NCBI GenBank assembly: GCA_947650365.1
Contig: CANTAL010000028.1
Span: 806,001-870,000 of the forward strand
Direction of reading: 5' to 3'
Length of the DNA stretch: 64,000 nucleotides
From: Chamaelirium japonicum
Taxonomy: Eukaryota; Streptophyta; Magnoliopsida; Liliales; Melanthiaceae
This document shows, piece after piece, positions 1 to 64,000 of the stretch. A program made the translations under genes and the position numbers. The notes under the pieces are model-generated. The model was not told the origin of the DNA and searched no databases. It was given only the letters and a program-made list of their open reading frames with translations. Numbering within the stretch: position 1 is the first letter of the stretch; every line of letters starts with the position of its first letter.

Positions 1-175
1 TCTAATTCCTTCGGACGATCCATTCTAATTCATTCGTACGATCTATTCTAATTCATTCGTACGATCCATTCTAATTCATTCGTACGATCCATTCTAATTC
101 CTTCGTACGATCCATTCTAATTCATTCGTACGATCCATTCTAATTCATTCGTACAATCTATTCGAATTCATTCGT
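1..175 (+). repeat. F block 1
   Basis: Plain 23-bp units with two CCTTCG variants. It ends at a class a switch. Its left end lies outside the window. Confidence 0.9.
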
Positions 176-560
176 ACGAATGGATACATTCGTGTGAATG
201 AATTAGAATGGATCGTACGAATGAGTAAGAATGGATCGTACGAATGAAATAGAATGGATTGCACGAATGAATTAGAATGGATCGTACGAATGAATTAGAA
301 TGGATCGTGTGAAAGAATTAGAATGGATTGTATGAATGAATTAGAATGGATCGTACGAAGGAATTAGAATGGATCGTACGAATGAATTAGAATAGATCGT
401 ACGAATGAATTAGAATAGATCGTACGAATGAATTAGAATGGATCGTACGAATGAATTAGAATGGATCGTGTGAAAAAATTAGAATGGATCGTACGAATGA
501 ATTAGAATGGATCGTGCGAATGAATTAGAATAGATTGCGCGAATGAATTAGAATGGATCG
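1..560. repeat. Left copy of a 2,961-bp spaced duplication
   Basis: ACAATCTATT before the class a switch is at 153 and again at 3,114, and the CGAAGGAATT variant is at 356 and 3,317, both 2,961 bp apart. The copy may begin before the window. The same order is also found at the three supermonomer class a sites. Confidence 0.8.
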
Positions 561-1068
561 TGCGAATGAATTAGAATGGATCGTATGAATGAATTAGAAT
601 GGATCGTACGAATGAATTAGAATAGATTGCGCGAATGAATTAGAATGGATCGTACGAATGAATTAGAATGGATCGTACGAATAAATTAGAATGGATCGTA
701 CGAATAAATTAGAATGAATTAGAATGGATCGTACGAATAAATTAGAATGGATACATTTGTCCGAATGAATTAGAATGGATCATACGAATGAGTAAGAATG
801 GATCGTATGAATGAAATAGAATAGATTGTATGAATGAATTAGAATGGATTCGTACGAATGAATTAGAATGGATACATTCGTGCGAATGAATTAGAATGGA
901 TCATACCAATGAGTAAGAATGGATCGTACGAATGAAATAGAATGGATTGTGCGAATGAATTAGAATGCATCGTACGAATGAATTAGAATGGATCGTGTGA
1001 AAGAATTAGAATGGATTGTATGAATGAATTAGAATAGATCGTATGAATGAATTAGAATGGATCGCACG
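176..1068 (-). repeat. R block 2
   Basis: Starts with cassette K (28-bp unit with GTGTG). Many units carry TTGCGCG or CGTATG changes. Three K starts (178, 752, 868). Ends at a class e switch. Confidence 0.9.
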
Positions 1069-3136
1069 AATGTATCCATTCTAATTCATTCGTACGAATC
1101 CATTCTAATTCATTCGTACAATCCATTCTATTTCATTCGTACGATCCATTCTTACTCATTCGTATGATCCATTCTAATTCATTCGCACGAATGTATCCAT
1201 TCTAAATCATTCGTACGATCCATTCTAATTCATTCGTACGATCCATTCTAAATCATTCGTACAATCCATTCTATTTCATTCGTACGATCAATTCTAATTC
1301 ATTAGCACGATCCATTCTAATTCATTCGTACGATCAATTCAAATTCATTCACACGATCCATTCTAATTCATTCGTACAATCCATTCTATTTCATTCGTAT
1401 GATCCATTCTTACTCATTCGTATGATCCATTCTAATTCATTCGCACGAATGTATCCATTCTAATCCATTCGTACGATCCATTCTAATCCATTCGTACGAT
1501 CCATTCTAATTCATTCGCATGAATGTAACCATTCTAATTCATTCATTTGATCCATTCTAATTCATTCGTACGATCCATTCTAATTCATTCATCCGATCCA
1601 TTCTAATTCATTCTCACGAATGTATCCATTCTAATTCATTCGTACGATCAGTTCTAATTCATTCACAAAATCTATTCTAATTCATTCATACGATCCATTC
1701 TAATTTATTCACACGAATGTATCCATTCTAATTCATTCATACGATCCATTCTAATTCATTCGTACGATCCATTCTAATTCACTCATACGATCCATTCTAA
1801 TACATTCATACGATCCATTCTAAATCATTTGCATGAATATATCCATTCTAATTCATTCGTACGATCCATTCTAATTCATTCGTACGATCTATTCTATTTC
1901 ATTCGTACGATCCATTCTTACTCATTCGTACGATCCATTCTAATTCATTCGTCCGATCCATTCTAATTCATTCGCACGAATGTATCCATTCTAATTCATT
2001 TACACGATCCATTCTAATTCATTTCTATGATCTATTCTAATTCATTCGTACGATCCATTCTAATTCATTCTAATTCATTCGTACGATCCATTCTATGATC
2101 CATTCTAATTCATTCATACGATCCATTCTAATTCATATGCACAAAGGTATCCATTCTAATCCATTCGTAGGATCCATTCTAATCCATTCGTACGATACAT
2201 TCTAATTCATTCGTGCGATCCTTTCTAATTTATTCGCACGAATGTATCCATTCTAATTCATTCGTACGATCCATTCTAATTCATTCGCACAATCTATTCT
2301 AATTCATTCATACGATCCATTCTAATTCATTCGCACGAATGTATCCATACTAATTCATTCATACGATCCATTCTACTTCATTCGTACTATCCGTTCTAAT
2401 TCACTCATACGATCCATTATAATTCATTCATACGATCCATTCTAATTCATTTGCACAAAGGTATCCATTCTAATTCATTTGTACGATCCATTCGAATTCA
2501 TTTGCACGATCCATTCTAATTCATTCGTACGATCCATTCTAATTCATTCGTACGATCCATTCTAAATCATTCGCACGATCCATTTTAATTCATTCGTACA
2601 ATCTATTCTATTTCATTCGTACGATCCATTCTTACTCATTCGTATGATCCATTCTAATTCATTCGGACGAATGTATCCATTCTAATTTATTCGTACGATC
2701 CATTCTAATTCATTCGTACGATCCATTCTAATTCATTCGTACGATCCATTCTAATTCATTCGTCCGATCCATTCTAATTCATTCACACGATCTATTCTAA
2801 TTCATTCGTACGATCCATTCTAATTGCTTTATATAATCCATTTTAATTCATTCGTACGATCCATTCTAATTCACTCAGACGATCCATTCTAATACATTCA
2901 TACGATCCATTCTAATTCATTAGCATGAATATATCCATTCGAATTCATTCGTATGATCCATTCTAATTCCTTCGTACGATCCATTCTAATTCATTCGTAC
3001 GATCTATTCTAATTCATTCGTATGATCCATTATAATTCATTCGTACGATCCATTCTAATTCCTTCGTACGATCCATTCTAATTCATTCGTACGATCCATT
3101 CTAATTCATTCGTACAATCTATTCTAATTCATTCGT
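1069..3136 (+). repeat. F block 3
   Basis: A long F run with about a dozen 28-bp units, cassette M near 1,528 and an N unit near 2,120. A partial unit is stacked at 2,085-2,100 (CTATGATCCATT). Near 2,825 a TTGCTTTATATAATCC unit is unusually diverged. Confidence 0.9.
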
Positions 3137-3521
3137 ACGAATGGATACATTCGTGTGAATGAATTAGAATGGATCGTACGAATGAGTAAGAATGGATCGT
3201 ACGAATGAAATAGAATGGATTGCACGAATGAATTAGAATGGATCGTACGAATGAATTAGAATGGATCTTGTGAAAGAATTAGAATGGATTGTATGAATGA
3301 ATTAGAATGGATCGTACGAAGGAATTAGAATGGATCGTACGAATGAATTAGAATGGATCGTACGAATGAATTAGAATAGATCGTACGAATGAATTAGAAT
3401 GGATCGTACGAATGAATTAGAATGGATCGTGTGAAAGAATTAGAATGGATCGTACGAATCAATTAGAATGGATCGTGCGAATGAATTAGAATAGATTGCG
3501 CGAATGAATTAGAATGAATCG
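2962..3521. repeat. Right copy of the 2,961-bp spaced duplication
   Basis: It shares with 1-560 the CCTTCGTACG variants, the class a switch and the following R run (28-bp unit, GAGTAAG, GAAATAG, TTGCACG, GTGAAAG). Beyond about 3,521 the monomer order differs. Confidence 0.75.
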
Positions 3522-6511: not shown

Positions 6512-6828
6512 ATGGATACATTCTTCGAATGAATTAGAATGGATCATACGAATGAGTAAGAATGGATCGTGCGAATGAATTAGAATGGATCGTACGAATG
6601 AATTAGAATGGATCGTGTGAAAGAATTAGAATGGATTGTATGAATGAATTAGAATCGATCGTATGAATGAATTAGAATGGATCGTACGAATGAATTAGAG
6701 TGGATCGTACGAATGAACTAGAATGGATACATTCGTGCGAATGAATTAGAATGGATCGTACGAATGAATTAGAATGGATCGTACGAATGAATTAGAATGG
6801 ATCTTACGAATGAATTAGAATGGATCGT
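6512..6828 (-). repeat. R block 8
   Basis: Starts with a shortened 28-bp unit (ACATTCTTCG), then part of cassette K. Ends at a class m switch. Confidence 0.9.
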
Positions 6829-7442
6829 GCGATCCATGCTAATTCATTTGTTCGATCAATTCTAATTCATTAGCACGATCCATTCTAATTCATTCATACG
6901 ATCCATTCTAATTCATTCGCACGATCCATTCTAATTCATTCGTACGATCCATTCTAATTCTTTCACACGATGCATTCTAATTCATTCGTACGATCCATTC
7001 TAATTCATTCCTATGATCTATTCTAATTCATTCGTACGATCCATTCTAATTTTATTCGTACGATCCATTCTAATTCATTCGCTCGAATGTATCCATTCTA
7101 ATCTATTCATTCGATCCATTCTAATCCATTTGTACGATCCATTCTAATTCATTCACATGAATGTAACCATTCTAATTCATTCATTTGATCCATTCTAATT
7201 CATTCGTACGATCCATTCTAATTCATTCGTCCGATCCATTCTAATTCATTCGCACGAATGTATCCATTCTAATCCATTCGTAAGATCCATTCTAATTCAT
7301 TCGTACAATCCATTCTAATTCATTCGTATGATCCATTCTAATTCATTAATATGATCCATTCTAATTCATTCGTACGATCCATTCTAATTCATATGCACAA
7401 AGGTATCCATTCTAATTCATTTGTACGATCCATTCTAATTCA
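6829..7442 (+). repeat. F block 9
   Basis: Order L, CTTTCACAC, GCTCGAATG 28-bp unit, M and N. It is copied as block 13 at 2,125 bp distance. Ends at class i. Confidence 0.9.
7380..7407 (+). repeat. Cassette N in F orientation (28-bp variant)
   Basis: A 28-bp unit with ATATGCACAAAGGTATC. F copies also lie near 2,120, 9,505, 36,751, 47,008 and 57,895. Confidence 0.85.
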
Positions 7443-7923
7443 GGATCGTACGAATGAATTAGAATGGATACATTCGTGCGAATGAATTAGAATTGATCGT
7501 ACGAATGAATTAGAATGGATCGTGCGAATGAATTAGAATGGATCGTACGAATGAATTAGAAAGGATCGTACGAATGAACTAGAATGGATACATTCGTGCG
7601 AACGAATTAGAATGGATCGTACGAATGAATTAGAATGGATCGTACGAATGAATTAGAATGGATCATACGATTGAATTAGAATGGATACATTCGTGCGAAT
7701 GAATTAGAATGGATCGGACGAATGAATTAGAATGGATCGTACGAATGAATTAGAATGGATCAAATGAATGAATTAGAATGGATCGTACGAATGAATTAGA
7801 ATGGATCGTACGAATGAATTAGAATGGATCGTACGAATGAATTAGAATGGATACATTCGTGCGAATGAATTAGAATGGATCGGACGAATGAATTAGAATG
7901 GATCGTACGAATGAATTAGAATG

Positions 7924-7974
7924 GATCAAATGAATGAATTAGAATGGTTACATTCATGCGAATGAATTAGAATG
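7924..7974 (-). repeat. Cassette M in R orientation, 51 bp
   Basis: GATCAAATGAATG followed by a 28-bp unit starting GTTACATTCATGCG, the exact reverse of cassette M. Other R copies lie near 10,073, 28,140, 38,397, 48,654, 52,036 and 62,581. Confidence 0.85.
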
Positions 7975-8164
7975 GATCGTACGAATGGATTAGAATGGAT
8001 CGTACGAATGGATTAGAATGGATACATTCGAGCGAATGAATTAGAATGGATCGTACGAATGAAATTAGAATGGATCGTACGAATGAATTAGAATAGATCG
8101 TACGAATGAATTAGAATGGATTGTACGAATGAATTAGAATGGATCGTACGAATAAATTAGAATG

Positions 8165-8353
8165 GATACATTCGTCCGAATGAATTAGAATGGATCATAC
8201 GAATGAGTAAGAATGGATCGTACGAATGAAATAGAATAGATTGTACGAATGAATTAGAATGGATCCTACGAATGAATTAGAATGGATCGTGTGAAAGAGT
8301 TAGAATGGATTGTATGAATGAATTAGAATGGATCCTATGAATGAATTAGAATG
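8165..8353 (-). repeat. Cassette K: eight-monomer higher-order unit, 189 bp
   Basis: In order: a 28-bp unit starting GATACATTCG, then seven 23-bp units marked by CATACGAATGAGTAAG, GAAATAG, TTGTACG, CCTACG, GTGTGAAAG, TTGTATG and CCTATG. The same order, whole or partial, starts near 178, 3,142, 10,313, 16,859, 22,880, 25,177, 28,629, 31,719, 35,480, 49,757, 55,106 and elsewhere. Its reverse reading (CTATTTC, CTTACTC, then a 28-bp unit) is common in F blocks. This is the clearest old higher-order repeat in the array. Confidence 0.85.
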
Positions 8354-8387
8354 GATCATGAGAATGAATTCGAATGGATCGTACGAA

Positions 8388-8793
8388 TTCATTCTAATTC
8401 ATTCATACAATCCATTCTAATTCTTTCACACGATCCATTCTAATTCATTCGTACGTTCCAATCTAATTCATTAGCACGATCCATGCTAATTCATTCGTTC
8501 GATCAATTCTAATTCATTAGCACGATCCATTCTAATTCATTCGTATGATCCATTCTAATTCCTTCGTACGATCCATTCTAATTCATTCGTATGATCTATT
8601 CTAATTCATTCGTACGATCCATTCTAATTCCTTCGTACGATCCATTCTAATTCCTTCGTACGATCCATTCTAATTCATTCGTACGATCCATTCTAATTCA
8701 TTCGTGCAATCCATTCTATTTCATTCGTATGATCCATTCTTACTCATTCGTACGATCCATTCTAATTCATTCACACGAATGTATCCATTCGTA
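8388..8793 (+). repeat. F block 11
   Basis: CATACAAT, CTTTCACAC, L, several CCTTCG units, CTATTTC/CTTACTC, then a 28-bp unit leading to class b. Copied as block 15. Confidence 0.9.
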
Positions 8794-8953
8794 CGAATGA
8801 ATTAGAATAGATTGTACGAATGAATTAGAATGGATCGTACGAATGAATTAGAATGGATCGTACGAATGAATTAGAATGGATCGTACGAATGAATTAGAAT
8901 GGATCGTACGAATGAATTAGAATGGATCTTATGAATGAATTAGAATGGATCGT
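8794..8953 (-). repeat. R block 12
   Basis: About seven plain R monomers between a class b and a class m switch. It begins the second 2.1-kb copy. Confidence 0.9.
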
Positions 8954-13475: not shown

Positions 13476-13546
13476 TTCATTCTAATTCATTCATACAATT
13501 CATTCTAATTCTTTCGCACGATCCATTCTAATTCATTCGTACGTTC

Positions 13547-14330: not shown

Positions 14331-14444
14331 CATTCTAATTCATTCGTACGATCCATTCTAATCCATTCGTACGATCCATTCTAATTCATTCGCATGAATG
14401 TAACCATTCTAATTCATTCATTTGATCCATTCTAATTCATTCGT

Positions 14445-15297
14445 ACGAATGAACTAGAATGGATACATTTGTGCGAATGAATTAGAATGGATCATACGAA
14501 TGAATTAGAATGGATCGTACGAATGAATTAGAATGGATCTGACGAATGAATTAGAATGGATCGTACGAATGAATTAGAATGGATCGTACGAATGAATTAG
14601 AATGGATACATTCGTGCGAATGAATTAGAATGGATCGGACGAATGAATTAGAATGGATCGTACAAATGAATTAGAATGGATCAAATGAATGAATTAGAAT
14701 GGATCGTACGAATGAATTAGAATGCATATTACGAAAGAATTAGAATGGATATATTCGTGCGAATGAATTAGAATGGATCGTACGAATGAATTAGACTGGA
14801 TCGTACGAATAAATTTGAATGGATACATTTGTGCGAATGAATCTAAATGGATTGTATGAATGAATTACAATGGATCGTACGAATGAATTACAATGGATCG
14901 TACGAATGAATTAGAATAGCTCATACGAATGAATTAGAATTAATCATATGAATGAATTAGAATGGTTACATTCATGCGAATGAATTAGAATAGATCGTAC
15001 AAATGAATTAGAATGGATCGTACGAATAAATTAGAATGGATCGTGGGAATGAATTAGAATGGATCGTACGAATGAATTAGAATAGATCCACCGAATGAGT
15101 TAGAATGGATCATACGAATGAATTAGAATGGATTGTACGAATGAATTAGAATGGATTGTGCGAATGAATTAGAATGGATCGCATGAATGAATAAGAATGG
15201 ATCGTACGAATGAATTAGAACAGATCGTGCGAATGAATTAGCATGAATCGTACGAATGTATTAGAATGGATCATACGAATGAATTAGAATGAATCGT
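14445..15297 (-). repeat. R block 22
   Basis: Has GAACTAG, CTGACG, CATATTACGAAAG, AATCTAAATGG and CCACCGAATGAG markers. Ends at class h. Confidence 0.9.
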
Positions 15298-16681
15298 ACG
15301 ATCCATTCTAATTCATTCGTACGATCCATTCTAATTCATTCGCACGAATGTATCCATTCTAGTTCATTCGTACGATCCATTCTAATTCATTCGTACGATC
15401 CATTCTAATTCATTCGCATGATCCATTCTAATTCGTTCGTACGATCCATTCTAATTCATTCGCACGAATGTATCCATTCTAGTTCATTCGTACGATCCAT
15501 TCTAATTCATTCGTACGATCCATTCTAATTCATTCGCACGAATATATCCATTCTAATTCTTTCGTACGATGCATTCTAATTCATTCGTACGATCCATTGT
15601 AATTCAATCATTTGATCCATTCTAATTCATTCGTACGATCCATTCTAATTCATTCGTCCGATCCATTTTAATTCATTCGCACGAATGTAGCCATTCTAAT
15701 TCATTCGTACGATCCATTCTAATTCATTCGTACGATCCATTCTAACTCATTCGTAAGATCCATTCTAATTTATTCGTACGATCCATTCTAATTCATTCGT
15801 ACGATCCATTCTAATTCATTAGCACGATTTATGCTAATTCATTCGTTCGATCAATTCTAATTCATTAGCACGATCCATTCTAATTCATTCGTACGATCCA
15901 TTCTAATTCATTCGCACGATCCATTCTAATTCATTCATAGGATCCATTCTAATTCATTCATACAATCCATTCTAATTCATTCGCACGAATGTATCCATTC
16001 TAATTCATTCGTACAATCAGTTCTAATTCATTCACAAAATCTATTCTAATTCATTCATACGATCCATTCTAATTCATTCACACGAATGTATCCATTCTAA
16101 TTCATTCATACGATCCATTCTAATTCATTCGTACGATCCATTCTAATTCACTCATACGATCTATTCTAATACATTCATATGATCCATTCTAATTCATTTG
16201 CACGAATATATTCATTCTAATTCATTCGTACGATCCATTCTAATTCCTTTGTACGATCCATTCTAATTCGTTCGTACGATCTATTCTATTTCATTCGTAC
16301 GATCCATTCTTACTCATTCGTACGATCCATTCTAATTCATTCGTCTGATCCATTCTAATTCATTCGCACGAATGTATCCATTCTAATTCATTCGTTCGAT
16401 AAATTCTAATTCATTAGCACGATCCATTCTAATTCATTCGTACGATCCATTCTAATTCATTCGCACGATCCATTCTAATTCATTCGTAAGATCCATTCTA
16501 ATTCATTCGTACGATCCATTCTAATTCATTCGTACGATCCATTCTAATTCATTCGCACGAATGTATCCATTCTAGTTCATTCGTACAATCCATTCTAATT
16601 CATTCATACAATCCATTCTAATTCATTCGCACGAATGTATCCATTCTAATTCATTCGTAAGATCAGTTCTAATTCATTCGT
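15298..16681 (+). repeat. F block 23
   Basis: 28-bp units at 15,341 and 15,461 lie 120 bp apart, a local period of four 23-bp units plus one 28-bp unit. L near 15,822; CACAAAATC near 16,033. Ends at class g. Confidence 0.9.
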
Positions 16682-17153
16682 GCGAATGAATTAGAATGGA
16701 TCCACCGAATGAGTTAGAATGGATCATACGAATGAATTAGAATGGATTGTACGAATGAATTAGAATGGATTGTGCGAATGAATTAGAATGGATCGTACGA
16801 ATGAATAAGAATGGATCCTACGAATGAATTAGAATGGATCGTACGAATGAATTAGAATGGATACATTCGTGTGAATGAATTAGAATGGATCATACGAATG
16901 AGTAAGAATGGATCGTACGAATGAAATAGAATGGATTGTACGAATGAATTAGAATGGATTTGTACGAATGAATTAGAATAGATACATTCGTGCGAAAGAA
17001 TTAGAATGGATCATACGAATGAGTAAGAATGGATCGTACGAATGAAATAGAATAGATTGTACGAATGAATTAGAATGGATCCTACGAATGAATTAGAATA
17101 GATCATGTAAAAGAATTAGAATGGATTGTATGAATGAATTAGAATGAATTTGT
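16682..17153 (-). repeat. R block 24
   Basis: CCACCG unit, two K starts (16,859 and 16,980) with a 24-bp GGATTTGTACG unit between them. Ends at a T-variant of class f (GAATTTGTACG). Confidence 0.9.
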
Positions 17154-18001
17154 ACGATCCATTCGAATTCATTCACACGATCCATTCTAATTCATTCATA
17201 CGATCCATTCTAATTCATTCATACAATCCATTCTAATTCTTTCACACGATCCATTCTAATTCATTCGTAGGATCCATTCTAATTCATTCGTATGATCCAT
17301 TCTAATTCATTCGTACGATCCATTCTAATTCATTCGTCCGATCCATTCTAATTCATTCGCACGAATGTATCCATTCTAATTCATTCGTACGATCCATTCT
17401 AATTCATTCATACGATCCATTCTAATTCATTCGTAAGATCCATTCTAATTCATTTGTACGATCCATTCTAATTTATTTGTACGATCCATTCTAATTCATT
17501 TGCACGAATGAATCCATTCTAGTTCATTCGTACGATCCATTCTAATTCATTCGTACGATCCATTCTAATTCATTCGCACGATCCATTCTAATTCATTCGT
17601 ACGATCCATTCTAATTCATTCATACGATCCATTCTAATTCATTCGTACGATCCATTCTAATTCATTGGCACAAATGTATCCATTCTAATTCATTCGTACG
17701 ATCCATTCTAATTCATTCGTACGATCCATTTTAATTCATTCGCACGAATGTATCCATTCTAATTCATTCGTACGATATATTCTAATTCATTCGTACGATC
17801 CATTCTAATTAATTCGTACGATCGATTCTAATTCATTCGTATGATCCATTCTAATTCATTCGTACGATCCATTCTTACTCATTCGTACGATCCATTCTTA
17901 TTCCTTCGTACGATCCATTCTAATTCCTTCGTAAGATCCATTCTAATTCATTCGCACGATCCATTCTAATTCTTTCATACAATCCATTCTAATTCTTTCG
18001 T
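17154..18001 (+). repeat. F block 25
   Basis: Plain units, 28-bp units near 17,357, 17,498, 17,667 and 17,743, then CTTTCATAC. Ends at class g. Confidence 0.9.
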
Positions 18002-19502
18002 GCGAATGAATTAGAATGGATACCTTTGTGCATATGAATTAGAATGGATCGTACGAATGAATTAGAATGGATCATATTAATGAATTAGAATGGATCGTAC
18101 GAATGAATTAGAATGGATACATTCGTGCGAATGAATTAGAATGGATCGTGCGAATCAATTAGACTAGATCGTGCGAATGAATAAGAATAGATCATACGAA
18201 TGAATTAGAATGGATCGTACGAATTAATTAGAATGGATACATTCGTGCGAATGAATTAGAATGGATTGTATGAATGAATTAGAATGGATCGTACGAATGA
18301 ATTAGAATGGATCATACGAATTAATTAGAATGGATCATACGAATGAATTAGAATGGATCGTACGAATGAATTAGAATGGATCGTACGAATGAATTAGAAT
18401 GGATCGTGCGAAAGAATTAGAATGGATCGTACGAATGAATTAGAATGGATACATTTGTGCGAATGAATTAGAATGGATTGTACGAATGAATTAGAATGGA
18501 TCTTATAAATGAATTAGAATGGATCGTACGAATGAATTAGAATGGATCGTGCGAATGAATTAGAATAGATCGTACGAATGAATTAGAATGGATCGTGTGA
18601 AAGAATTAGAATGGATCGTACGAATGAATTAGAATGGATCGCGCGAATGAATTAGAATGGATCGTACGAATGAACTAGAATGGATACATTCATGCGAATG
18701 AATTAGAATGGATCGTACAAATGAATTAGAATGGATCGTACGAATGAATTAGAATGGATCTTACGAATGAATTAGAATGGATCGTACGAATGAATTAGAA
18801 TGGATCGTACGAATGAATTAGAATGGATACATTCGTGCGAATGAATTAGAATGGATCGGACAAATGAATTAGAATGGATCGTACGAATGAATTAGAATGG
18901 ATCGTACGAATAAATTAGAAAGGATACATTCATCCGAATGAATTAGAATGGATCATATGAATGAGTAAGAATGGATCGTACGAATGAAATAGAATAGATT
19001 GTACGAATGAATTAGAATGGATTCGTTCGAATGAATTAGAATGGATACATTCGTCCGAATGAATTAGAATGGATCGTACCAATGAGTAAGAATGGATCGT
19101 ACGAATGAAATAGAATGGATTGTGCGAATGAATTAGAATGGATCGTACGAATGAATTAGGATGGATCGTGTGAAAGAATTAGAATGGATTGTATGAATGA
19201 ATTAGAATAGATCGTAATGGATACATTCGTGCGAATTAATTAGAATGGATCGTATGTACGAATGATTTAGAATGGATACATTCGTGCGAATGAATTAGAT
19301 TGGATTGTGCGAATGAATTAGAATGGATCGTACGAATGAATTACAATGGATCGTACGAATGGATTAGAATGGATCCTACGAATGGATTAGACTGGATACC
19401 TTTGTGCATATGAATTAGAATGGATCGTACGAATGAATTAGAATGGATCATATGAATGAATTAGAATGGATCGTGCGAATGAATTCGAATGGATCGCACG
19501 AA
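18002..19502 (-). repeat. R block 26
   Basis: N units at 18,020 and 19,395, AATCAATTAGAC near 18,153, K starts near 18,925 and 19,040, and a truncated unit near 19,212-19,260 (GATCGTAATGG, CGTATGTACG). Ends at class c with GCACG. Confidence 0.9.
19395..19422 (-). repeat. Cassette N in R orientation (28-bp variant)
   Basis: GATACCTTTGTGCATATG, the reverse of cassette N. R copies also lie near 18,020, 24,158, 28,328, 38,585, 48,842, 52,233 and 62,764. Confidence 0.85.
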
Positions 19503-39761: not shown

Positions 39762-40166
39762 CCAATGAGTAAGAATGGATCGCACGAATGAATTAGAATG
39801 GATCATATGAATGAATTAGAATGGATTGTGCGAATGAATTAGAATGGATCGTACGAATGAATTAGAATGGATCGTGTGAAAGAATTAGAATGGATTGTAT
39901 GAATGAATTAGAATAGATCGTATGAATGAATTTGAATGGATCGTACGAATGAATTAGAATGGATCGTACGAATGAATTAGAATGGATACATTCGTGCGAA
40001 TGAATTAGAATGGATACATTCGTGCGAAAGAATTAGAATAGATCGTATGAATGAATTAGAATGGATCGTACGAATAAATTAGAATGGATCGTACGAATGA
40101 ATTAGAATAGATCGTATGAATGAATTAGAATGGATCGTGCGAATGAATTCGAATGGATCGTACGAA
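39762..40166 (-). repeat. R block 48
   Basis: Supermonomer copy of block 38, keeping its AATAAATT change. Confidence 0.92.
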
Positions 40167-41049: not shown

Positions 41050-42194
41050 ATGGATACATTCGTGCGAATGAATTAGAATGGATCATACGAATGAGTAAGA
41101 ATGGATCGTACGAATGAAATAGAATGGATTGTGCGATTGAATTAGAATGGATCGTACGAATGAATTAGAATGGATCGTTTGAAAGAATTAGAATGGATTG
41201 TATGAATGAATTAGAATGGATCGTACGAATGAATTAGACTGGATCGTATGAGTGAATTAGAATGGATACGAAGGAATTAGAATGGATCGTACGAAGGAAT
41301 TAGAATGGATCATACGAATGAAATAGAATGGATCGTACGAAGGAATTAGAATGGATCGTACGAAGGAATTAGAATGGATCGTACGAATGAATTAGAATGG
41401 ATATATTCATGCAAATGAATTAGAATGGATCGTATGAATGAAATAGAATGGATCGTATGAGTGAATTAGAACGGATAGTACGAATGAAGTAGAATGGATC
41501 GTATGAATGAATTAGAATGGATACTTTCGTGCGAATGAATTAGAATGGATCGTATGAATGAATTAGAATAGATTGTGCGAATGAATTAGAATGGATCGTA
41601 CGAATGAATTAGAATGGATACATTCGTGCGAATAAATTAGAATGGATTGTATGAATGAATTAGAATGGATCGTACGAATGAATTAGAATGGATCTTACGA
41701 ATGAATTAGAATAGATTGCGCGAATGAATTAGAATGGATCATACAAATGAATTAGAATGGATCGTACGAAGGAATTAGAATGGATTGTACGAATGAATTA
41801 GAATGGATCGTACGAATGAATTAGAATGGATCGTACGAAGGAATTAGAATGGATCGTACGAATGAATTAGAATGGATCGTACGATTGAATTAGAATGGAT
41901 CATACGAATGAGTAAGAATGGATTCGAATGGATCGTGCGAATAAATTAGAATGGATCATACGAATAAATTAGAATGGATACATTCGTCTGAATGAATTAG
42001 AATGGATCATACGAATGAGTAAGAATGGATCGTACGAATGAAATAGAATAGATTATACGAATGAATTAGAATGGATCCTACGAATGAATTAGAATGGATC
42101 GTGTGAAAGAATTAGAATGGATTGTATGAATGAATTAGAATGGATCGTATGAATGAATTAGAATGGATCGTGCGAATGAATTCGAATGGATCGT
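41050..42194 (-). repeat. R block 50
   Basis: Supermonomer copy of block 40. Private changes include TTAGACTGG near 41,234 and CGTCTGAATG near 41,985. Confidence 0.92.
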
Positions 42195-43237
42195 ATGATC
42201 CATTCTAATTCATTCATACAATCCATTCTAATTCATTCGCACGAATGTATCCATTCTAATCCATTTGTACGATCCATTCTAATCCATTCGTACGATCCAT
42301 TCTAATTCATTCGCATGAATGTAACCATTCTAATTCATTCATTTGATCCATTCTAATTCATTCGTACGATCTATTCTAATTCATTCGTCCGATCCATTCT
42401 AATTCATTCGCACGAATGTATCCATTCTAATTCATTCGTACGATCCATTCTAATTCATTCGTACGATCCATTCTAATTCATTCGTAAGATCCATTCTAAT
42501 TCATTCCCACGATCCATTAATCCATTCTAATTTATTCGTACGATCCATTCTAATTCATTCGTACGATCTATTCTAATTCATTCGCACGAATGTAACCATT
42601 CTAATTCATTCATACGATTCATTCTAATTCATTCGTATGAGCTATTCTAATTCATTCGTACTATCCATTCTAATTCATTCTTACGATCCATTGTAATTCA
42701 TTCATACAATCCATTTAGATTCATTCGCACAAATGTATCCATTCAAATTCATTCGTACGATCCAGTCTGATTCATTCGTACGATCTATTCTAATTCATTC
42801 GTTCGAATGTATCCATTTTAATTCATTCGTACGATCCATTCTAATTCATTCATACGATGTAATTCATTCGTACGATCCATTCTAATTCATTCGTACGATC
42901 GATTCTAATTCATTCGCACTATCCATTCTAATTCATTCGTACGATCCATTCTAATTCATTCGTATGATCCATTCTAATTTATTCATTCAAATATATCCAT
43001 TCTAATTCATTCATACGATCCATTCTAATTCATTCGCACGATCCATTCTAATTCATTCGCACGAATGTATCCATTCTAATTCATTTGCACGATCCATTCT
43101 AATTCATTCCGATGATCTATTCTAATTCATTCGTACGATCCATTCTAATTCATTCTAATTCATTCGTACGATACATTCTACGATCCATTCTAATTCATTC
43201 GTATATTCTATTCTAATTCATTAGCACGATCCATGCT
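42195..43237 (+). repeat. F block 51
   Basis: Supermonomer copy of block 41, with its truncated units. One change is TTTATTCATTC near 42,979. Confidence 0.92.
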
Positions 43238-43258
43238 AATGAATTAGAATGGATCGTA
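43238..43258 (-). repeat. R block 52, copied single-monomer island
   Basis: Supermonomer copy of block 42. Confidence 0.9.
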
Positions 43259-44610
43259 CGATCCAATCTAATTCATTCATACGATCCATTCTTACTTATT
43301 TGTATGATCCATTCTAATTCAATCGTACGATCCATTCTAATTCATTCGTACGATCTATTCTAATTACTTCGTACGATCTATTCTAATTCATTCGTACGAT
43401 CCGTTCTAATTCGTTCGTACGATCCATTCTAATTCATTCGTACGATCCATTCTAATTCATTCGCGCAATCTATTCTAATTCATTCGTACGATCCATTCTA
43501 ATTCATTCGTACGATCCATTCTAATTCATTCATACAATCCATTCTAATTTATTCGCACGAATGTATCCATTCTAATTCATTCATACGATCCATTCTAATT
43601 CATTCGCACAATCTATTCTAATTCATTCATACGATCCATTCTAATTCATTCGCACGAATGTATCCATTCTAATTCATTCATACGATCCATTCTACTTCAT
43701 TGTTACTATCCGTTCTAATTCACTCATACGATCCATTCTAATTCATTCATACGATCCATTCTAATTCAATTGTACGAATATATCCATTCTAATTCATTCG
43801 TACGATCCATTCTAAGTTCTTAGTACGATCCATTCTAATTCCTTCGTACCATTCTAATTCCTTCGTACGATCCATTCTAATTCCTTCGTACAATCCATTC
43901 TATTACATTCGTATGATCCATTCTAATTCCTTCGTACGATCCATTCTAATTCCTTCGTGTCCATTCTAATTCACTCATACGATCCATTCTAATTCATTTG
44001 TACGATCCATTCTAATTCATTCATACAATCCATTCTAATTCAATCGCACGAATGTATCCATTCTAATTCATTCGTACGATCAGTTCTAATTCATTCACAA
44101 AATCTATTCTAATTCATTCATACGATCCATTCTAATTCATTCACACGAATGTATCCATTCTAATTCATTCATACAATCTATTCTAATTTATTTATACGAT
44201 CCATTCTAATTCACTCATACGATCCATTCTAATACATTCATACGATCCATTCTAATTCATTTGCACGAATATATCCATTCTAATTCATTCGTACGATCCA
44301 TTCTAATTCCTTCGTACGATCCATTCTAATTCATTCATACGATCTATTCTAATTCATTCGTACGATCCATTCTAATTCATTCGTACGATCCATTCTAATT
44401 CCTTCGTACGATCCATTCTAATTCATTCGTACGATCCATTCTAATTCATTCATACGATCCGTTCTAATTCTTTCACACGATCCATTCTAATTCATTCGTA
44501 CGATCCATTCTAATTCATTTGTGCAATCCATTCTATTTCATTCGTACGATCCATTCTTACTCATTCGTATGATCCATTCTAATTCATTCACACGAATGTA
44601 TCCATTCGTA
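43259..44610 (+). repeat. F block 53
   Basis: Supermonomer copy of block 43, with its 18-bp unit. It has more private changes than other blocks (for example near 43,355, 43,692, 43,880, 44,174 and 44,459). Confidence 0.92.
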
Positions 44611-45975
44611 CCAATGAATTAGAATAGATTGTACGAATGAATTAGAATGGATCGTACGAATGAATTAGAATGGATCGTACGAATGAATTAGAATGGATAC
44701 ATTCGTGCGAATAAATTAGAATGGATTGTGCGAATGAATTAGAATGGATCGTACGAATGAATTAGAATGGATATATTCGTGCAAATGAATTAGAATGGAT
44801 CGTATGAATGTATTAGAATGGATCGTATGAGTAAATTAGAATGGATCGTACGAATGAATTAGAATGGATTGTATGAATGAATTAGAATGGATCGTACGAA
44901 TGAATTAGAATGGATCATACGAATTAATTTGAATGGATCGTACGAATGAATTAGAATGGATCGTACGAATGAATTAGAATGGATCGTACGAATGAATTAG
45001 AATGGATGCATTCGTGCGAATGAATTAGAATGGATTGTGCGAATGAAAAAGAACAGATCGTGCGAATGAATTAGAATGGATCGCACGAATGAATTAGAAT
45101 GGATCGTGCGAATGAATTAGAATGGATTGTACGAATGAATTAGAATGGATACATTTGTGCGAATGAATTAGAATGGATCGTACAAATGAATTAGAATGGA
45201 TCGTATGAATAAATTAGAATGGATCGTACGAATGAATTAGAATGGATCGTGCGAATGAATTATAATGGATCGTACGAATGAATTAGAATGGATCGTGTGA
45301 AAGAATTAGAATGGATCGTACGAATGAATTAGAATGGATCGTGCGAATGAATTAGAATGGATCGTACGAATGAATTAGAATGGATACATTTGTGCGAATG
45401 AATTAGAATGGATCGTACGAATGAATTAGAATGGATCGTATGAATGAATTAGAATGGATCGTACGAATGAATTAGAATGGATCGTACGAATAAATTAGAA
45501 TGGATACATCCGTCCGAATGAATTAGAATGGATCATACGAATGAGTAAGAATGGATCGTACGAATGAAATAGAATAGATTGTACGAATGAATTTGAATGG
45601 ATCCTACGAATGAATTAGAATGGATCGTGCGAAAGAATTAGAATGGATTGTATGAATGAATTAGAATGGATCGTATGAAAGAATTAGAATGGATCGTACG
45701 AATGAATTAGAATGGATCGTACGAATAAATTAGAATGGATACATTCGTCCGAATGAATTAGAATGGATCATACGAATGAGTAAGAATGGATCGTACGAAT
45801 GAAATAGAATAGATTGTACGAATGAATTAGAATGGATCATACGAATGAGTAAGAATGGATCGTACGAATGAAATAGAATAGATTGTACGAATGAATTAGA
45901 ATGGATCCTACGAATGAATTAGAATAGATCGTGTGAAAGAATTAGAATGGATTGTATGAATGAATTAGAATGAAT
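44611..45975 (-). repeat. R block 54
   Basis: Supermonomer copy of block 44. CGTATGAGTAAATT near 44,825 against CGTATGCGTAAATT in block 44. Confidence 0.92.
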
Positions 45976-47843
45976 TCGTACGATCCATTCGAATTCATTC
46001 GCACGATCCATTCTAATTCATTCATACGATCCATTCTAATTCATTCATACAATCCATTCTAATTCTTTCACACGATCCATTCTAATTCATTCGTAGGATC
46101 CATTCTAATTCATTCTTACAATCTATTCTATTTCATTCGTACGATCCATTCTTACTCATTCGTATGATCCATTCTAATTCATTCGGACGAATGTATCCAT
46201 TCTAATTTATTCGTACGATCCATTCTAATTCATTCGTACGATCCATTCTAATTCATTCGTACGATCCATTCTAATTCATTCGCACGAATGTATCCATTCT
46301 AATTCATTCGTACGATCCATTCTAATTCATTCGTACGATCCATTCTAATTCATTCGCACGAATGTATCCATTCTAGTTCATTCGTTCGATCCATTCTAAT
46401 TCATTCGTACGATCCATTCTAATTCATTCGCACGATTCATTCTAATTCATTCGTCCGATCCATTCTAATTCATTCATACGATCCAATCTAATTCATTCGT
46501 ACCATCCATTCTAATTCATTCGCACAAATATATCCATTCTAATTCATTCGTACGATCCATTCTAATTCATTCGCACAATCCATTCTAATTCATTCGTCCG
46601 AACCATTCTAATTCATTCGCACGATCTGTTCTTATTCATTCGCACAATCCATTCTAATTCATTCGCACGAATGTATCCATTCTAATTCATTCGTACGATC
46701 CATTCTAATTCAGTCGTATGATCCATTCTAATTAATTTGTATGATCCATTCTAATTCATTCGTACGATCCATTCTAATTCATTCATACAATCCATTCTAA
46801 TTCATTCGCACGAATGTATCCATTCTAATTAATTCGTACGATCCATTCTAATTCATTCGTATAATCTATTCTTATTCATTCACACGATCCAGTCTAATTG
46901 ATTCGCACGATCCATTCTAATTGATTCGCACGAATGTATCCATTCTAATTCATTCGTATGATCCATTCTAATTCATTAATATGATCCATTCTAATTCATT
47001 CGTATGATCCATTCTAATTCATATACACAAAGGTATCCATTCTAATCCATTCGTAGGATCCATTCTAATCCATTTGTACGATCCATTCTAATTCATTCGT
47101 ACGATCCATTCTAATTCGTTCGCTCGAATGTATCCATTCTAATCCATTCGTACGATCCATTCTAATTCATTCGCATGAATGTAACCATTCTAATTCATTC
47201 ATTTGATCCATTCTAATTCATTCGTACGATCCATTCTAATTCATTCGTCCGATCAATTCTAATTCATTCGCACGAATGTATCCATTCTAATTCATTCGTA
47301 CGATCCATTCTAATTCATTCGTAAGATCCATTCTAATTCATTCGTACGATCCATTCTAATTCATTCGTACGATCCATTCTAATTCATTCGCACGAATGTA
47401 TCCATTCTAGTTCATTCGTACGATCCATTCTAATTCATTCGTACGATCCATTCTAATTCATTCGCACGATCCATTCTAATTCATTCGTACGATCAATTCT
47501 AATTCATTCGCACGAATGTATCCATTCTAATTCATTCATACGATCCATTCTAATTCATTCGTACGATCCATTCTAATTCACTCATACGATCCATTCTAAT
47601 ACACTCATACGATCCATTCTAATTCATTTGCACGAATATATCCATTTTAATTCATTCGTACGATCCATTCTAATTCCTTCGTACGATCCATTCTAATTCA
47701 TTCATACGGTCTATTCTAATTCATTCGTACGATCCATTCTAATTCATTCGTACGATCCATTCTAATTCCTTCATACGATCCATTCTAATTCATTCGTACG
47801 ATCCATTCTAATTCATTCGTACAATCTATTCTAATTCATTCGT
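45976..47843 (+). repeat. F block 55
   Basis: Supermonomer copy of block 45. Copy three starts near 47,274. 28-bp units near 47,389 and 47,509 are again 120 bp apart. Confidence 0.92.
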
Positions 47844-49983
47844 ACGAATGGATACATTCGTGTGAATGAATTAGAATGGATCGTACGAATGAGTAAGAAT
47901 GGATCGTACGAATGAAATAGAATGGATTGCACGAATGAATTAGAATGGATCATACGAATGAATTAGAATGGATCGTGTGAAAGAATTAGAATGGATTGTA
48001 TGAATGAATTAGAATGGATCGTACGAATGAATTAGAATGGATCGTACGAAGGAATTAGAATGGATCGTACGAATGAATTAGAATGGATCGCACGAATGAA
48101 TTAGAATAGATCGTACGAATGAATTAGAATGGATCGTACGAATGAATTAGAATGGATCGTACGAAGGAATTAGAATGGATCGTACGAATGAATTAGAATG
48201 GATCGTACGAATGAATTAGAATAGATCGTACGAATGAATTAGAATGGATCGTACGAAGAAATTAGAATGGATCGTAGGAATGAATTAGAATTGATCGTAT
48301 TAATGAATTAGAATGGATACATTCGTGCGAATGAATTAGAATTGATCGTATGAATGAATTAGAATGGATCGTGCGAATGAATAAGAATGGATCGTACGAA
48401 TGAATTAGAATGGATCGTACGAATGAACTAGAATGGATACATTCGTGCGAATGAATTAGAATGGATTGTACGAATGAATTAGAATGGATCGTACGAATGA
48501 ATTAGAATGGATCTTACGAATGAATTAGAATGGATCGTACGAATGAATTAGAATGGATCGTACGAATGAATTAGAATGGATACATTCGTGCGAATGAATT
48601 AAAATGGATCGGACGAATGAATTAGAATGGATCGTACGAATGAATTAGAAAGGATCAAATGAATGAATTAGAATGGTTACATTCATGCGAATGAATTAGA
48701 ATGGATCGTACGAATGGATTAGAATGGATCGTACGAATGGATTAGAATGGATACATTCGAGCGAATGAATTAGAATGGATCGTACGAATTAATTAGAATG
48801 GATCGTACGAATGGATTAGAATGGATCCTACGAATGGATTAGAATGGATACCTTTGTGCATATGAATGGATTAGAATGGATCCTACGAATGGATTAGAAT
48901 GGATCATATTAATGAATTAGAATGGATCGTACGAATGAATTAGAATGGATACATTCGTGCGAATGAATTAGAATGGATCGTGCGAATCAATTAGACTGGA
49001 TCGTGTGAATGAATAAGAATAGATCATACGAATGAATTAGAATGGATCGTACGAATTAATTAGAATGGATACATTCGTGCGAATGAATTAGAATAGATTG
49101 TATGAATGAATTAGAATGGATCGTACGAATGAATTAGAATGGATCATACGAATTAATTAGAATGGATCATACGAATGAATTAGAATAGATCATACGAATG
49201 AATTAGAATGGATCATACGAATGAATTAGAATGGATACATTCGTAGGAATGAATTAGAATGGATTGTGCGAATGAATAAGAACAGATCGTGCGAATGAAT
49301 TAGAATGGATCGTACGAATGAATTAGAATGGATACATTTGTGCGAATGAATTAGAATGGATCGTACGAATGAATTAGAATGGATCGTATGAATGAATTAG
49401 AATGGATCGTACGAATGAATTAGAATGGATCGTGCGAATGAATTAGAATGGATCGTATGAATGAATTAGAATGGATCGTACGAATGAATTAGAATGGATC
49501 GTACGAATGAACTAGAATGGATACATTCGTGCGAATGAATTATAATGGATCGTTTGAATGAATTAGAATGGATCGTACGAATAAATAAGAATGGATCTTA
49601 TGAATGAATTAGAATGGATCGTACGAATGAATTAGAATGGATCATACGAATGAATTAGAATGGATACATTTGTGCGAATGAATTAGAATGGATCAGACGA
49701 ATGAATTAGAATGGATCGTACGAATGAATTAGAATGGATCGTACGAATAAATTAGAATGGATACATTCGTCCGAATGAATTAGAATGGATCATACGAATG
49801 AGTAAGAATGGATCGTACGAATGAAATAGAATAGATTGTACGAATGAATTAGAATGGATCCTACGAATGAATTAGAATGGATCGTGTGAAAGAATTAGAA
49901 TGGATTGTATGAATGAATTAGAATGGATCGTATGAATGAATAAGAATGGATCGTGCGAATGAATTCGAATGGATTGTACGAAC
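47844..49983 (-). repeat. R block 56
   Basis: Copies block 36 up to 49,130, then continues differently (CATACGAATTAATT, AATAAGAACAG near 49,276, K near 49,757). Ends at a class c variant with AACTC. Confidence 0.9.
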
Positions 49984-59303: not shown

Positions 59304-60072
59304 ACGAATGAATTAGAATAGATTGTACGAATGAATTAGAATGGATCGTATGAATGAATTAGAATGGATCGTCCGAATGAATTAGAATGGATCGTGCGAA
59401 TGAATTAGAATGGATCGTACGAATGAACTAGAATGGATACATTCGTGCGAATGAATTAGAATGGATCGTACGAATGAATTAGAATGGATCGTACGAATGA
59501 ATTAGAATGGTCGTATGAATGAATTAGAATGGATCATACGAATGACTTAGAATGGATCATACGAATGAGTAAGAATGGATCGTACGAATGAAATAGAATG
59601 GATTGTACGAATGAATTAGAATGGATCGTACGAATGAACTAGAATGGATCGTGTGAAAGAATTAGAATGGATTGTATGAATGAATTAGAATGGATCATAT
59701 GAATGAATTAAAATGGATCGTGCGAATGAATTCGAATGGATCGTACGAATGAATTAGAATGGATCGTACGAATGAATTACAATGGATACATTCGTGCGAA
59801 TGAATTAGAATGGATACATTCGTGCGAAAGAATTAGAATATATCATATGAATGAATTAGAATGGATCCTATGAATGAATTAAAATGGATCGTGCGAATGA
59901 ATTAGAATGGATCGTACGAATGAATTAGAATAGATCGTGCTAATGAATTAGAATTGATCGAACGAATGAATTAGCATGGATCGTGCTAATGAATTAGAAT
60001 AGAACGTACGAATGAATTAGAATGGATCGTGTGAAAGAATTAGAATGGATTGTATGAACGAATTAGAATGAA
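59304..60072 (-). repeat. R block 70
   Basis: Includes a shortened GGTCGTATG near 59,509, two adjacent 28-bp units near 59,786 and L in R near 59,936. Ends at class f. Confidence 0.9.
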
Positions 60073-60500
60073 TTCGTACGATCCATTCGAATTCATTCGC
60101 ACGATCCATTCTAATTCATTCATACGATCCATTCTAATTCATTCATACAATCCATTCTAATTCTTTCACACGATCCATTCTAATTCATTCGTAGGATCCA
60201 TTCTAATTCATTCGTACAATCTATTCTATTTCATTCGTACGATCCATTCTTACTCATTCGTATGATCCATTCTAATTCATTCGGACGAATGTATCCATTC
60301 TAATTTATTCGTACGATCCATTCTAATTCATTCGTACGATCCATTCTAATTCATTCGTACGATCCATTCTTACTCATTCGTATGATCCATTCTAATTCAT
60401 TCGTACAATCCAATCTAATTCATTCATACGATCCATTCTAATTCAATCGCACAATCTATTCTAATTCATTCGTATGATCCATTTTAATTCATTCGTACGA
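60073..60500 (+). repeat. F block 71
   Basis: CATACAAT, CTTTCACAC, GTAGGATCC, CTATTTC/CTTACTC and GGACGAATG, resembling the starts of blocks 31 and 45. Ends at class o. Confidence 0.9.
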
Positions 60501-61449: not shown

Positions 61450-62305
61450 TTCATTCTAATTCATTCATACAATCCATTCTAATTCTTTCACACGATCCAT
61501 TTTAATTCATTCGTACGTTCCATTCTAATTCATTAGCACAATCCATGCTAATTCATTCGTTCGATCAATTCTAATTCATTAGCACGATCCATTCTAATTC
61601 ATTCGTACGATCCATTCTAATTCATTCGCACGATCCATTCTAATTCATTCATAGGATCCATTCTAATTCATTCATACGATCTATTCTAATTCTTTCGCAC
61701 GAATGTATCCATTCTAATTCATTCGCACGAATGTATCCATTCTAATTCATTCGTACGATCCATTCTAACTCATTTGTACGATCCATTCTAATTCTTTCGT
61801 ACGATCCATTCTAATTCTTTCATACGATCTATTCTAATTCATTCATACAATCCATTCTAATTCTTTCACACGATCCATTCTAATTCATTCGTACGATCCA
61901 TTCTAATTCATTCGCACAATCCATTCTATTTCATTCGTACGATCCATTTTTACTCATTGGTACGATCCATTCTAATTCATTCGCACGAATGTATCCATTC
62001 TAATTCATTCGTACGAATCCATTCTAATTCATTCGTACAATCTATTCTATTTTATTCGTACGATCCATTCTTACTCATTCGTATGATCCATTCTAATTCA
62101 TTCGGACGAATGTATCCATTCTAATTTATTCGTACGATCCATTCTAATTCATTCGTACGATCCATTCTAATTCATTCTTACGATCCATTCTAATTCATTC
62201 GTCCGATCCATTCTAATTCATTCGTACGATCCATTCTAATTCATTCGTACGATCCATTCTAATTCATTCGTACGATCCATTCTAATTCATTCGCACGATC
62301 CATGC
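61450..62305 (+). repeat. F block 75
   Basis: CATACAAT, L near 61,531, two adjacent 28-bp units near 61,700 and 61,728, TTTTACTCATTGG. The order matches blocks 35 and 39. Ends at class l. Confidence 0.9.
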
Positions 62306-62881
62306 TAATGAATTAGAATGTATCGTACGAATGAATTAGAATGGATCGTACGAATGAATTAGAATGGATCTTACGAATGAATTAGAATGGATCGTACGAA
62401 TGAATTAGAATGGATCGTACGAATGAATTAGAATGGATCTTACGAATGAATTAGAATGGATCGTACGAATGAATTAGAATGGATCGTACGAATGAATTAG
62501 AATGGATACATTCGTGCGAATGAATTAGAATGGATCGGACGAATGAATTAGAATGGACCGTACGAATGAATTAGAATGGATCAAACGACTGAATTAGAAT
62601 GGTTACATTCATGCGAATGAATTAGAATGGATCGTACGAATGGATTAGAATGGATCGTACGACTGGATTAGAATGGATACATTCGAGCGAATGAATTAGA
62701 ATGGATCGTACGAATGAATTAGAATAGATCACACGAATGGATTAGAATGGATCCTACGAATGGATTAGAATGGATACCTTTGTGCATATGAATTAGAATG
62801 CATCGTACGAATGAATTAGAATGGATCATATTAATGAATTAGAATGGATCGTACGAATGAATTAGAATGGATACATTCGTG
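62306..62881 (-). repeat. R block 76
   Basis: Two CTTACG units, M in R (62,581) with AAACGACTG, N in R (62,764), CATATTAATG. Ends at class j. Confidence 0.9.
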
Positions 62882-64000
62882 CACGATCAATTCTAATTCA
62901 TCCGCACGAATGTATCCATTCTAATTCATTCGTACGATCCATTCTAATTCATTAATATGATCCATTCTATTTCATTCGTACGATCCATTCTTACTCATTC
63001 GTATGATCCATTCTAATTCATTCGCACGAATGTATCCATTCTAAATCATTCGTACGATCCATTCTAATTCATTCGTACGATCCATTCTAAATCATTCGTA
63101 CAATCCATTCTATTTCATTCGTACGATCAATTCTAATTCATTAGCACGATCCATTCTAATTCATTCGTACGATCCATTCAAATTCATTCGCACGATCCAT
63201 TCTAATTCATTCATACAATCCGTTCTATTTCATTCGTACGATCCATTCTTACTCATTCGTATGATCCATTCTAATTCATTCGCACGAATGTATCCATTCT
63301 AATCCATTCGTACGATCCATTCTAATTCATTCGCATGAATGTAACCATTCTAATTCATTCATTTGATCCATTCTAATTCATTCGTACGATCCATTCTAAT
63401 TCATTCGTCCGATCCATTCTAATTCATTCGCACGAATGTATCCATTCTAAACCATTCATACGATCCATTCTAATTTATTTGTACGATCCATTCTAATTCA
63501 TTCGCACGAATGTATCCGTTCTAATTCATTCGTACGATCTATTCTAATTCATTCGTACGATCTATTCAAATTCATTCGTAAGATCCATTCTAATTCATTC
63601 GTATGATCCATTCTAATTCATTCGTACGATCCATTCTAATTCATTCGGACGAATGTATCCATTCTAGTTCATTTATACGATCCATTCTAATTCATTCGCA
63701 CGATCCATTCTAATTCATTCGTACGATCCATTCTAATTCATTCATACGATCCATTCTAATTCATTCGTACGATCCATTCTAATTTATTCGCACAAATGTA
63801 TCCATTCTAATTTATTCGTACGATCCATTCTAATTCATTCGCACGATCCATTCTAATTCATTCGTACGATCCATTCTAATTCTTTCACACGATCCATTCT
63901 AAATCATTTGTACGATCCATTCTAATTCATTCGCACGATCCATTCTAATTCATTCGTACGATCCATTCTAATTCATTCATACGATCCATTCTAATTCATT
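62882..64000 (+). repeat. F block 77
   Basis: TTAATATG, CTATTTC/CTTACTC sets, M near 63,332, 28-bp units near 63,016, 63,284, 63,429 and 63,510. It runs off the right end of the window. Confidence 0.9.

What the first reader, a model, noticed from the sequence alone, without database searches (positions are those of the whole stretch)
1..64000. Satellite array switches orientation about 76 times in 64 kb
Most simple satellites stay head-to-tail over long runs. Here F and R blocks alternate at a mean of about 0.8 kb, and the two orientations are nearly balanced (about 33.3 against 30.7 kb by my block edges). Near balance plus palindromic switch points suggests a recurrent inversion process such as template switching, palindrome extrusion or exchange between sister arrays, not a few rare inversions. 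It could also give transcripts of both senses from one locus, hence double-stranded RNA. That last step is inference.
Basis: partly seen in the sequence, partly recalled or inferred. Interest (0 to 1): 0.78.

Follow-up and report, generated by a model that had tools for sequence, protein, structure and literature searches.

The report
Satellite DNA that keeps flipping orientation
A 64,000-base stretch built from one short repeat changes direction about every 900 bases, mostly because a limited set of flip points has been copied, moved and turned around inside the array, so it looks like a dense example of a pattern already seen in some animal satellites rather than a new kind of thing.

Summary
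The window is a 23-bp satellite end to end; a two-strand profile parse finds 72 orientation switches (66-72 for penalties -10 to -28; reader: about 76), 30,807 against 33,193 bp. Turning all blocks one way gives 0 switches.

"One inversion per switch" does not hold. By flanking sequence the 72 switches form about 21 junction classes (13-24 by threshold), two with 15 and 12 copies. 57 of 72 lie inside near-identical tracts of 400 bp or more shared with another place. Four masked direct copies carry 22 switches.

Flipping did recur: both big classes occur in both directions (9/6, 5/7), the tree of one forces at least 3 orientation changes, and outside those copies long shared tracts are as often inverted (22) as direct (20), against 0-1 in shuffles.

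Switch axes sit on the monomer's CGTACG palindrome in 8 of 21 classes, against 19 of 472 simulated inversion joins. Arms are mostly not long palindromes. Near balance is uninformative.

Closest known: Tribolium macro-dyad satellites and human BSat/HSat "mosaic inversion" arrays. Host, raw reads, function and double-stranded RNA were not testable.

The parts
1..64000 (.). 23-bp satellite array, unit GAATGAATTAGAATGGATCGTAC on +, 73 blocks of alternating orientation
   Evidence: TRF; profile parse, 72 switches; three 50-bp-window stretches under 72% match, lowest 70%, so no sizeable insert seen
8364..8415 (.). junction class A (+ to -), representative at 8,390; 15 copies at 8390, 10538, 13478, 19505, 26460, 29912, 40169, 49985, 61452 (one direction) and 17150, 23168, 35719, 45976, 56004, 60074 (other direction)
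   Evidence: same 15 members at flanks of 50 and 100 bp; tree of 10 copies
3113..3164 (.). junction class b (- to +), representative at 3,139; 12 copies at 178, 3139, 27332, 37589, 47846 (one direction) and 8789, 10937, 34349, 44606, 53860, 55401, 59300 (other direction)
   Evidence: tree of 8 copies
32981..33004 (+). 24-bp mini-block between junctions i and J; direct copy at 43238-43261, inverted relative at 54607-54620 inside a 599-bp inverted tract
26766..38887 (+). large direct duplication: 12,122 bp, 99.81% identical to 37023-49144 (shift 10,257)
37023..49144 (+). second copy of the large duplication, carrying 11 switches (masked in the corrected counts)
25138..26871 (+). direct duplication, 1,734 bp, 99.42% to 28590-30323 (and to 38847-40580)
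6738..8953 (+). direct duplication with 8863-11101: 949 bp at 98.63% (shift 2,125) and 1,350 bp at 99.19% (shift 2,148)
14441..18095 (+). older direct duplication with 20505-24233: 1,841 bp 97.0%, 801 bp 97.6%, 847 bp 97.0%
35564..36098 (.). inverted copy of a junction-bearing tract: 535 bp, 98.13% to 49602-50136 reversed, spans switch 35,719
59539..60163 (.). longest inverted near-identical tract: 625 bp, 95.84% to 61359-61983 reversed, spans switch 60,074
62114..62484 (.). the one switch (62,307) with a fold-back-like pair of near-identical arms: 62114-62291 against 62307-62484 reversed, 178 bp
   Evidence: arm identity 0.967
14441..15301 (+). block bounded by two switches both on the CGTACG axis (14,441 and 15,302): candidate simple inversion (inference)
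   Evidence: axes

Best explanation
It is a single-family satellite array in which orientation is scrambled in two steps. (1) Founder switches: breaks rejoin in the opposite sense, preferentially on the CGTACG palindrome that every monomer carries. A palindrome reads the same on both strands, so any two monomers, although in tandem, share inverted microhomology there, and rejoining in the wrong sense keeps the repeat in phase. (2) Spread: segments that already hold a switch are copied directly (tandem or segmental duplication up to about 12 kb here), and homologous exchange between oppositely oriented blocks (inversion by recombination, or gene conversion that does not care about orientation) turns and redistributes tracts of up to about 0.6 kb. 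Shown: the switches, the shared junction classes, copies in both directions, the direct duplications, the bias to the CGTACG axis. Inferred: the repair pathway, the order of steps and the role of recombination between opposite blocks.
For: About 21 classes for 72 switches, two holding 27; 57 of 72 switches inside shared tracts of 400 bp or more, 52 in direct and 28 in inverted ones. Class A 9/6 and class b 5/7 in the two directions; class A tree (10 of 15 copies, 5 dropped as products of the masked duplications) needs 4 orientation changes, starred branches force 3. With one copy of four duplications removed, tracts of 400 bp or more: 20 direct, 22 inverted; 0-1 of either in seven shuffles. 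The monomer variants of the two orientations are then one pool (overlap 0.673, block permutations 0.666 +/- 0.016). The near-identical stretches of 800 bp or more are direct only, 11 against 0. Axis on CGTACG in 8 of 21 classes, 4 of each polarity, against 19 of 472 simulated random joins, p about 9e-7.
Against: The axis bias covers 8 of 21 classes strictly; by eye A, b, C, P, S and U sit on the same element with small indels or a 28-bp monomer beside it, untested, and k, d, g, i, o, Q, r do not. Equality of direct and inverted matches below about 300 bp is mostly chance similarity: at 200 bp or more shuffles give 143-338 per orientation against 493 and 497, so the argument rests on 42 long tracts that are not independent, since many belong to classes A and b. 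Class b does not by itself need more than 1 change (18% of bootstrap trees have 1). Before masking the two orientations' variant spectra did differ (overlap 0.657 against 0.727, 1 in 1,000). The bootstrap of tree A had not settled. Inversion and conversion are not told apart.
Confidence: 0.6

Rival explanations
1. Each switch is a separate fold-back: the replication fork meets a cruciform or hairpin at the palindrome and switches to the opposite strand, giving a long palindrome each time.
For: Switch axes favour a palindrome. One switch of 72 (62,307) has a 178-bp near-identical inverted tract on its flanks, and the arms of class l (0.950) and class o (0.933, 0.967) exceed those of all other classes compared; class F (0.917) equals the best.
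Against: Across the 21 representatives tested (class b left out because it lies too near the window start) own-arm identity minus other-arm identity averages -0.007, Wilcoxon p 0.56. Most switches are copies. Old fold-backs could have lost the signal, so this weakens rather than kills the idea for founders.
Confidence: 0.15
2. Orientation was scrambled once, long ago, and only copying and gene conversion between blocks has happened since; conversion tracts that span a junction overwrite other junctions and need no new inversion.
For: Inverted near-identical tracts are no longer than 625 bp, which fits conversion tracts; conversion explains both many copies and both directions without changing the number of switches.
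Against: About 21 sequence classes, 10 of which have no more than 2 copies by my list, mean many separate join events at some time. The sequence alone does not date them.
Confidence: 0.15
3. The alternation is kept by selection, because opposed arrays fold into hairpins or loops that matter for pericentromeric chromatin, as proposed for Tribolium.
For: Conserved inversion sites are reported in Tribolium madens (PMC13081366, abstract, passages and section 7 part 1 read). Here two junction classes are also repeated many times.
Against: Switch windows are not copied more than interior windows: mean 2.98 other copies (n 50) against 14.9 (n 120), same tolerance (the interior figure is inflated by chance similarity). 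Block lengths and balance are as random dealing gives. Location in the chromosome is unknown.
Confidence: 0.07
4. Assembly or library artefact: fold-back chimeric reads or wrong joins.
For: No raw reads could be seen. The 99.81% duplication over 12,122 bp could in principle be an assembly error.
Against: Fold-back reads give near-perfect long arms, found at 1 of 72 switches. Wrong joins should not prefer one of 23 phases nor recur as 2-5% diverged copies in both directions.
Confidence: 0.05

Closest known systems
Macro-dyad satellites of Tribolium (TmSat1/TmSat2, T. madens; PMC13081366: abstract, passages, section 7 part 1)
   Same: Arrays of one satellite change orientation; inversion sites fall into a few types repeated many times (2,044 INV_1a and 3,486 INV_1b sequences in the paper); overall symmetry of the two orientations; short inverted repeats inside the units.
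   Different: Their units are 225 and 704 bp, arrays mostly hold two subarrays of several kb, two satellites are intermingled, and the two predominant TmSat1 inversion types are highly uniform (98-99%). Here the unit is 23 bp, there are 73 blocks of 0.9 kb in 64 kb and about 21 classes, and no second satellite was seen.
Human BSat and HSat arrays with 'mosaic inversion structure' (T2T-CHM13, PMC9186530, passages only)
   Same: Repeated orientation changes inside one satellite family.
   Different: Junction sequences and axes of those arrays were not compared here; the dedicated centromere paper (10.1126/science.abl4178) is not held.
Mouse MaSat/MiSat arrays (PMC10880262, passages only)
   Same: Direction switches occur.
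   Different: Reported in 0.85% of MaSat and 1.92% of MiSat arrays (the Discussion gives 1.7% and 1.9%), that is, rare.
Ordinary head-to-tail minisatellite or satellite arrays
   Same: Tandem 23-bp units, variant monomers, a loosely regular 28-bp variant, recent direct duplications.
   Different: Orientation is not kept.

Membership tests
Satellite / minisatellite DNA | Long tandem array of one unit without coding content | tested here: met
   0 ORFs of 120 aa or more; 0 tRNAs; 0 Rfam matches
Orientation-mosaic satellite (as in human BSat/HSat) | Many orientation switches within one family | tested here: met
   72 switches, 0 after turning all blocks one way
Orientation-mosaic satellite (as in human BSat/HSat) | Same junction types or ancestry as the human arrays | not tested
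   No eukaryote genome could be searched; family membership is not claimed
Tribolium-type macro-dyad satellite | Arrays mostly of two opposed subarrays of several kb | tested here: not met
   73 blocks, mean 877 bp
Tribolium-type macro-dyad satellite | Few, highly uniform inversion-site types repeated many times | tested here: inconclusive
   Two classes hold 27 of 72 switches, but about 21 classes in all
Tribolium-type macro-dyad satellite | Pericentromeric location, two intermingled satellites | not testable with these tools
   Host and chromosome unknown; no own genome held. No second satellite seen in the window
Fold-back (palindrome-extrusion) junctions | Arms more alike to each other than to arms of other junctions | tested here: not met
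   Mean difference -0.007, p 0.56 over 21 representatives; exceptions class l, class o and, on equal terms, class F

The most novel reading that the evidence does not exclude
The palindrome in the monomer makes the array orientation-free: a staggered break at CGTACG leaves ends that can join either way round without loss of phase, so the array behaves as one freely mixing pool in which strand has no lasting meaning. The 28-bp monomer, whose extra ACATT makes CATTCGTGCGAATG beside the same element, would be the same strand-switching event cut short after five bases. Orientation would then be a neutral, fast-changing character, with direct copies losing their common orientation after about 1-2% divergence.
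Probability: 0.15. Interest if true: 0.65.

Novelty: new variant of a known kind. Interest (0 to 1): 0.42.

Why it matters
Orientation switches in satellites are usually counted as if each were an event. Here most are copies of a smaller set of junctions, and the junctions themselves have been flipped, so switch counts overstate inversion rates. The link between a palindrome inside the monomer and the switch axis gives a prediction that can be checked in complete genomes: families whose unit carries a palindrome should switch more, and at that palindrome. If orientation is neutral, it also tempers claims that opposed arrays are selected for.

Tried and rejected
Host identification failed: no own genome is held (error); exact 34- and 24-base patterns in viral contigs, exact 34- and 20-base patterns in genome contigs and megablast of a 1,204-base block in plasmids and phages (low-complexity filter on) gave nothing. 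Most likely a eukaryote (inference). Six strings of the unit searched in the paper library gave one paper with a 12-base match, which is a dust-mite primer (PMC13091095, passage): chance.

Counting all near-identical matches as common descent was rejected: direct and inverted counts agree from 40 bp up, but monomer shuffles reproduce most matches under about 300 bp. Only tracts of 400 bp or more are used.

Loose clustering of junctions was rejected: at identity 0.90 or 0.92 with 75-bp flanks 4 or 6 classes result, but random interior pairs reach 0.933 at their 95th percentile. With 26-bp flanks and up to 5 edits single linkage gave 14 clusters, one of which mixed several junctions. The first offset measure depended on where the parse put the join and was replaced by the axis.

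A functional excess of copies at switches was looked for and not found. The HSat1A paper PMC9909926 was searched for inversion terms and held nothing useful. PMC7004042, PMC12692304, PMC8997354 and PMC4022460 (passages) gave background only.
Full report
What is there. The window is one satellite from end to end. The unit on the + strand is GAATGAATTAGAATGGATCGTAC. A profile parse that allows indels and a switch of strand gives 72 switches and 73 blocks of 13 to 2,542 bp, mean 877. The count is stable at 66-72 for switch penalties -10 to -28 and rises to 170 only at the loosest setting, where 67 blocks are under 60 bp; turning all blocks to one strand leaves 0 switches. There is no ORF of 120 aa, tRNA or Rfam match, and no stretch that falls below 70% match to the unit in a 50-bp window.

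Balance. The 30.8/33.2 kb split looks striking but follows from alternation: block lengths of the two orientations have one distribution (KS p 0.97) and 39% of random dealings are at least as balanced.

The switches are mostly copies. Flanks of 50 or 100 bp group the 72 switches into 19 or 21 classes at the thresholds used; 13-24 over thresholds from the 95th percentile of random interior pairs upwards. Class A has 15 members and class b 12, identical membership at both flank lengths. 57 of 72 switches lie inside a tract of 400 bp or more that is near-identical to another place (52 in direct, 28 in inverted tracts, 23 in both). Four direct copies that I masked (97.0-99.8% identical to their partners) hold 22 switches, leaving 50 in 44,176 bp. 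After masking, 27 of 50 switches lie in such tracts and 23 do not.

The copies have been turned. Class A occurs 9 times in one direction and 6 in the other, class b 5 and 7. A tree of 10 of the 15 class A copies needs 4 changes of direction and its starred branches force 3; the bootstrap had not settled. For 8 of 12 class b copies 2 changes are needed but only 1 is forced. So junction-bearing pieces have been inverted, or copied in inverted sense, more than once.

Old against young copies. With the four duplications masked, tracts of 400 bp or more number 20 direct and 22 inverted, against 0-1 of each in seven shuffles of the monomers; of 500 bp or more 12 and 8 (20 and 23 at 400 bp in the slightly different count). 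Below about 300 bp most matches are chance: at 300 or more, real 60 and 76, shuffles 3-23. The variant spectra of the two orientations then do not differ, although they did before masking. In contrast, the 11 near-identical matches of 800 bp or more are all direct. In identity bands, with masking and at 300 bp or more, 98-99% gives 3 direct and 4 inverted, 97-98% gives 10 and 24, and 99% or more gives 1 and 0. The simplest reading is that new long copies are made in direct orientation and lose that bias within about 1-2% divergence; numbers in the top bands are small.

Where the founders broke. The axis of symmetry of a switch can fall on any of 23 phases. In 8 of 21 classes (E, F, J, N of + to -; h, l, m, t of - to +) it falls on the centre of CGTACG; F is scored by two of its three members. 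Simulated random joins put 19 of 472 there, p about 9e-7. By eye, A, b, C, P, S and U lie on the same element with a small indel or a 28-bp monomer beside it; this was not tested. Classes k and d lie on other dyads; g, Q and r on none that I see. Equal numbers of both polarities are what two-break inversions would leave (inference).

Fold-back or inversion. A fold-back makes arms that mirror each other. Over 21 representatives (class b not included) own arms are no more alike than arms of other classes: mean difference -0.007, p 0.56. Exceptions are class l, class o and, on equal terms with its best rival, class F; switch 62,307 of class o has a 178-bp inverted tract on its flanks, the only one of 150 bp or more found so placed. 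Fold-back therefore happens at times but is not the general source.

Are switches favoured? Switch windows of 120 bp have fewer other copies (mean 2.98, n 50; 77 direct, 72 inverted) than interior windows (mean 14.9, n 120; 887 direct, 904 inverted), so there is no sign that junctions are preferentially multiplied; the interior figure includes chance matches.

Comparison. In Tribolium madens the two major satellites change orientation within arrays and their inversion sites fall into a few conserved types; the authors state that macro-dyad symmetries were documented only in Tribolium (PMC13081366). The complete human genome paper mentions a mosaic inversion structure in some BSat and HSat arrays (PMC9186530, passages). 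In mouse, direction switches are rare (PMC10880262, passages). The present array works like these but is much denser, with a far shorter unit. I file it as a variant of orientation-mosaic satellites and not as a member of the Tribolium type, whose two-subarray layout is not met.

Limits. The host, the chromosome position and the reads are unknown. The ten paper searches cover open-licence papers only, so absence of this satellite from print is not claimed beyond the six strings. Double-stranded RNA is possible in principle, since both senses lie close together, but nothing here tests it.

Noticed in passing
window 1-64000: A 28-bp monomer (insert ACATT, making CATTCGTGCGAATG around the CGYRCG element) makes up 340 of 2,654 monomers and is spaced 3-6 monomers apart far more often than chance (118 intervals against about 58 expected geometrically, masked sequence), a loose higher-order repeat that also shows as 97-, 120- and 143-bp periods.
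   Followed up: partly
26766-49144: A 10,257-bp direct duplication (12,122 bp at 99.81%) with a further partial copy of 1,865 bp at 47280-49144.
   Followed up: partly
4343-4393: A 51-bp reversed block bounded by two unique junctions (classes Q and r), ending in a stretch (tattcctttctca) unlike the unit.
   Followed up: no
32981-33004 and 54607-54619: Blocks of 24 and 13 bp, the smallest switch pairs in the parse; they belong to one junction pair seen in both directions.
   Followed up: partly
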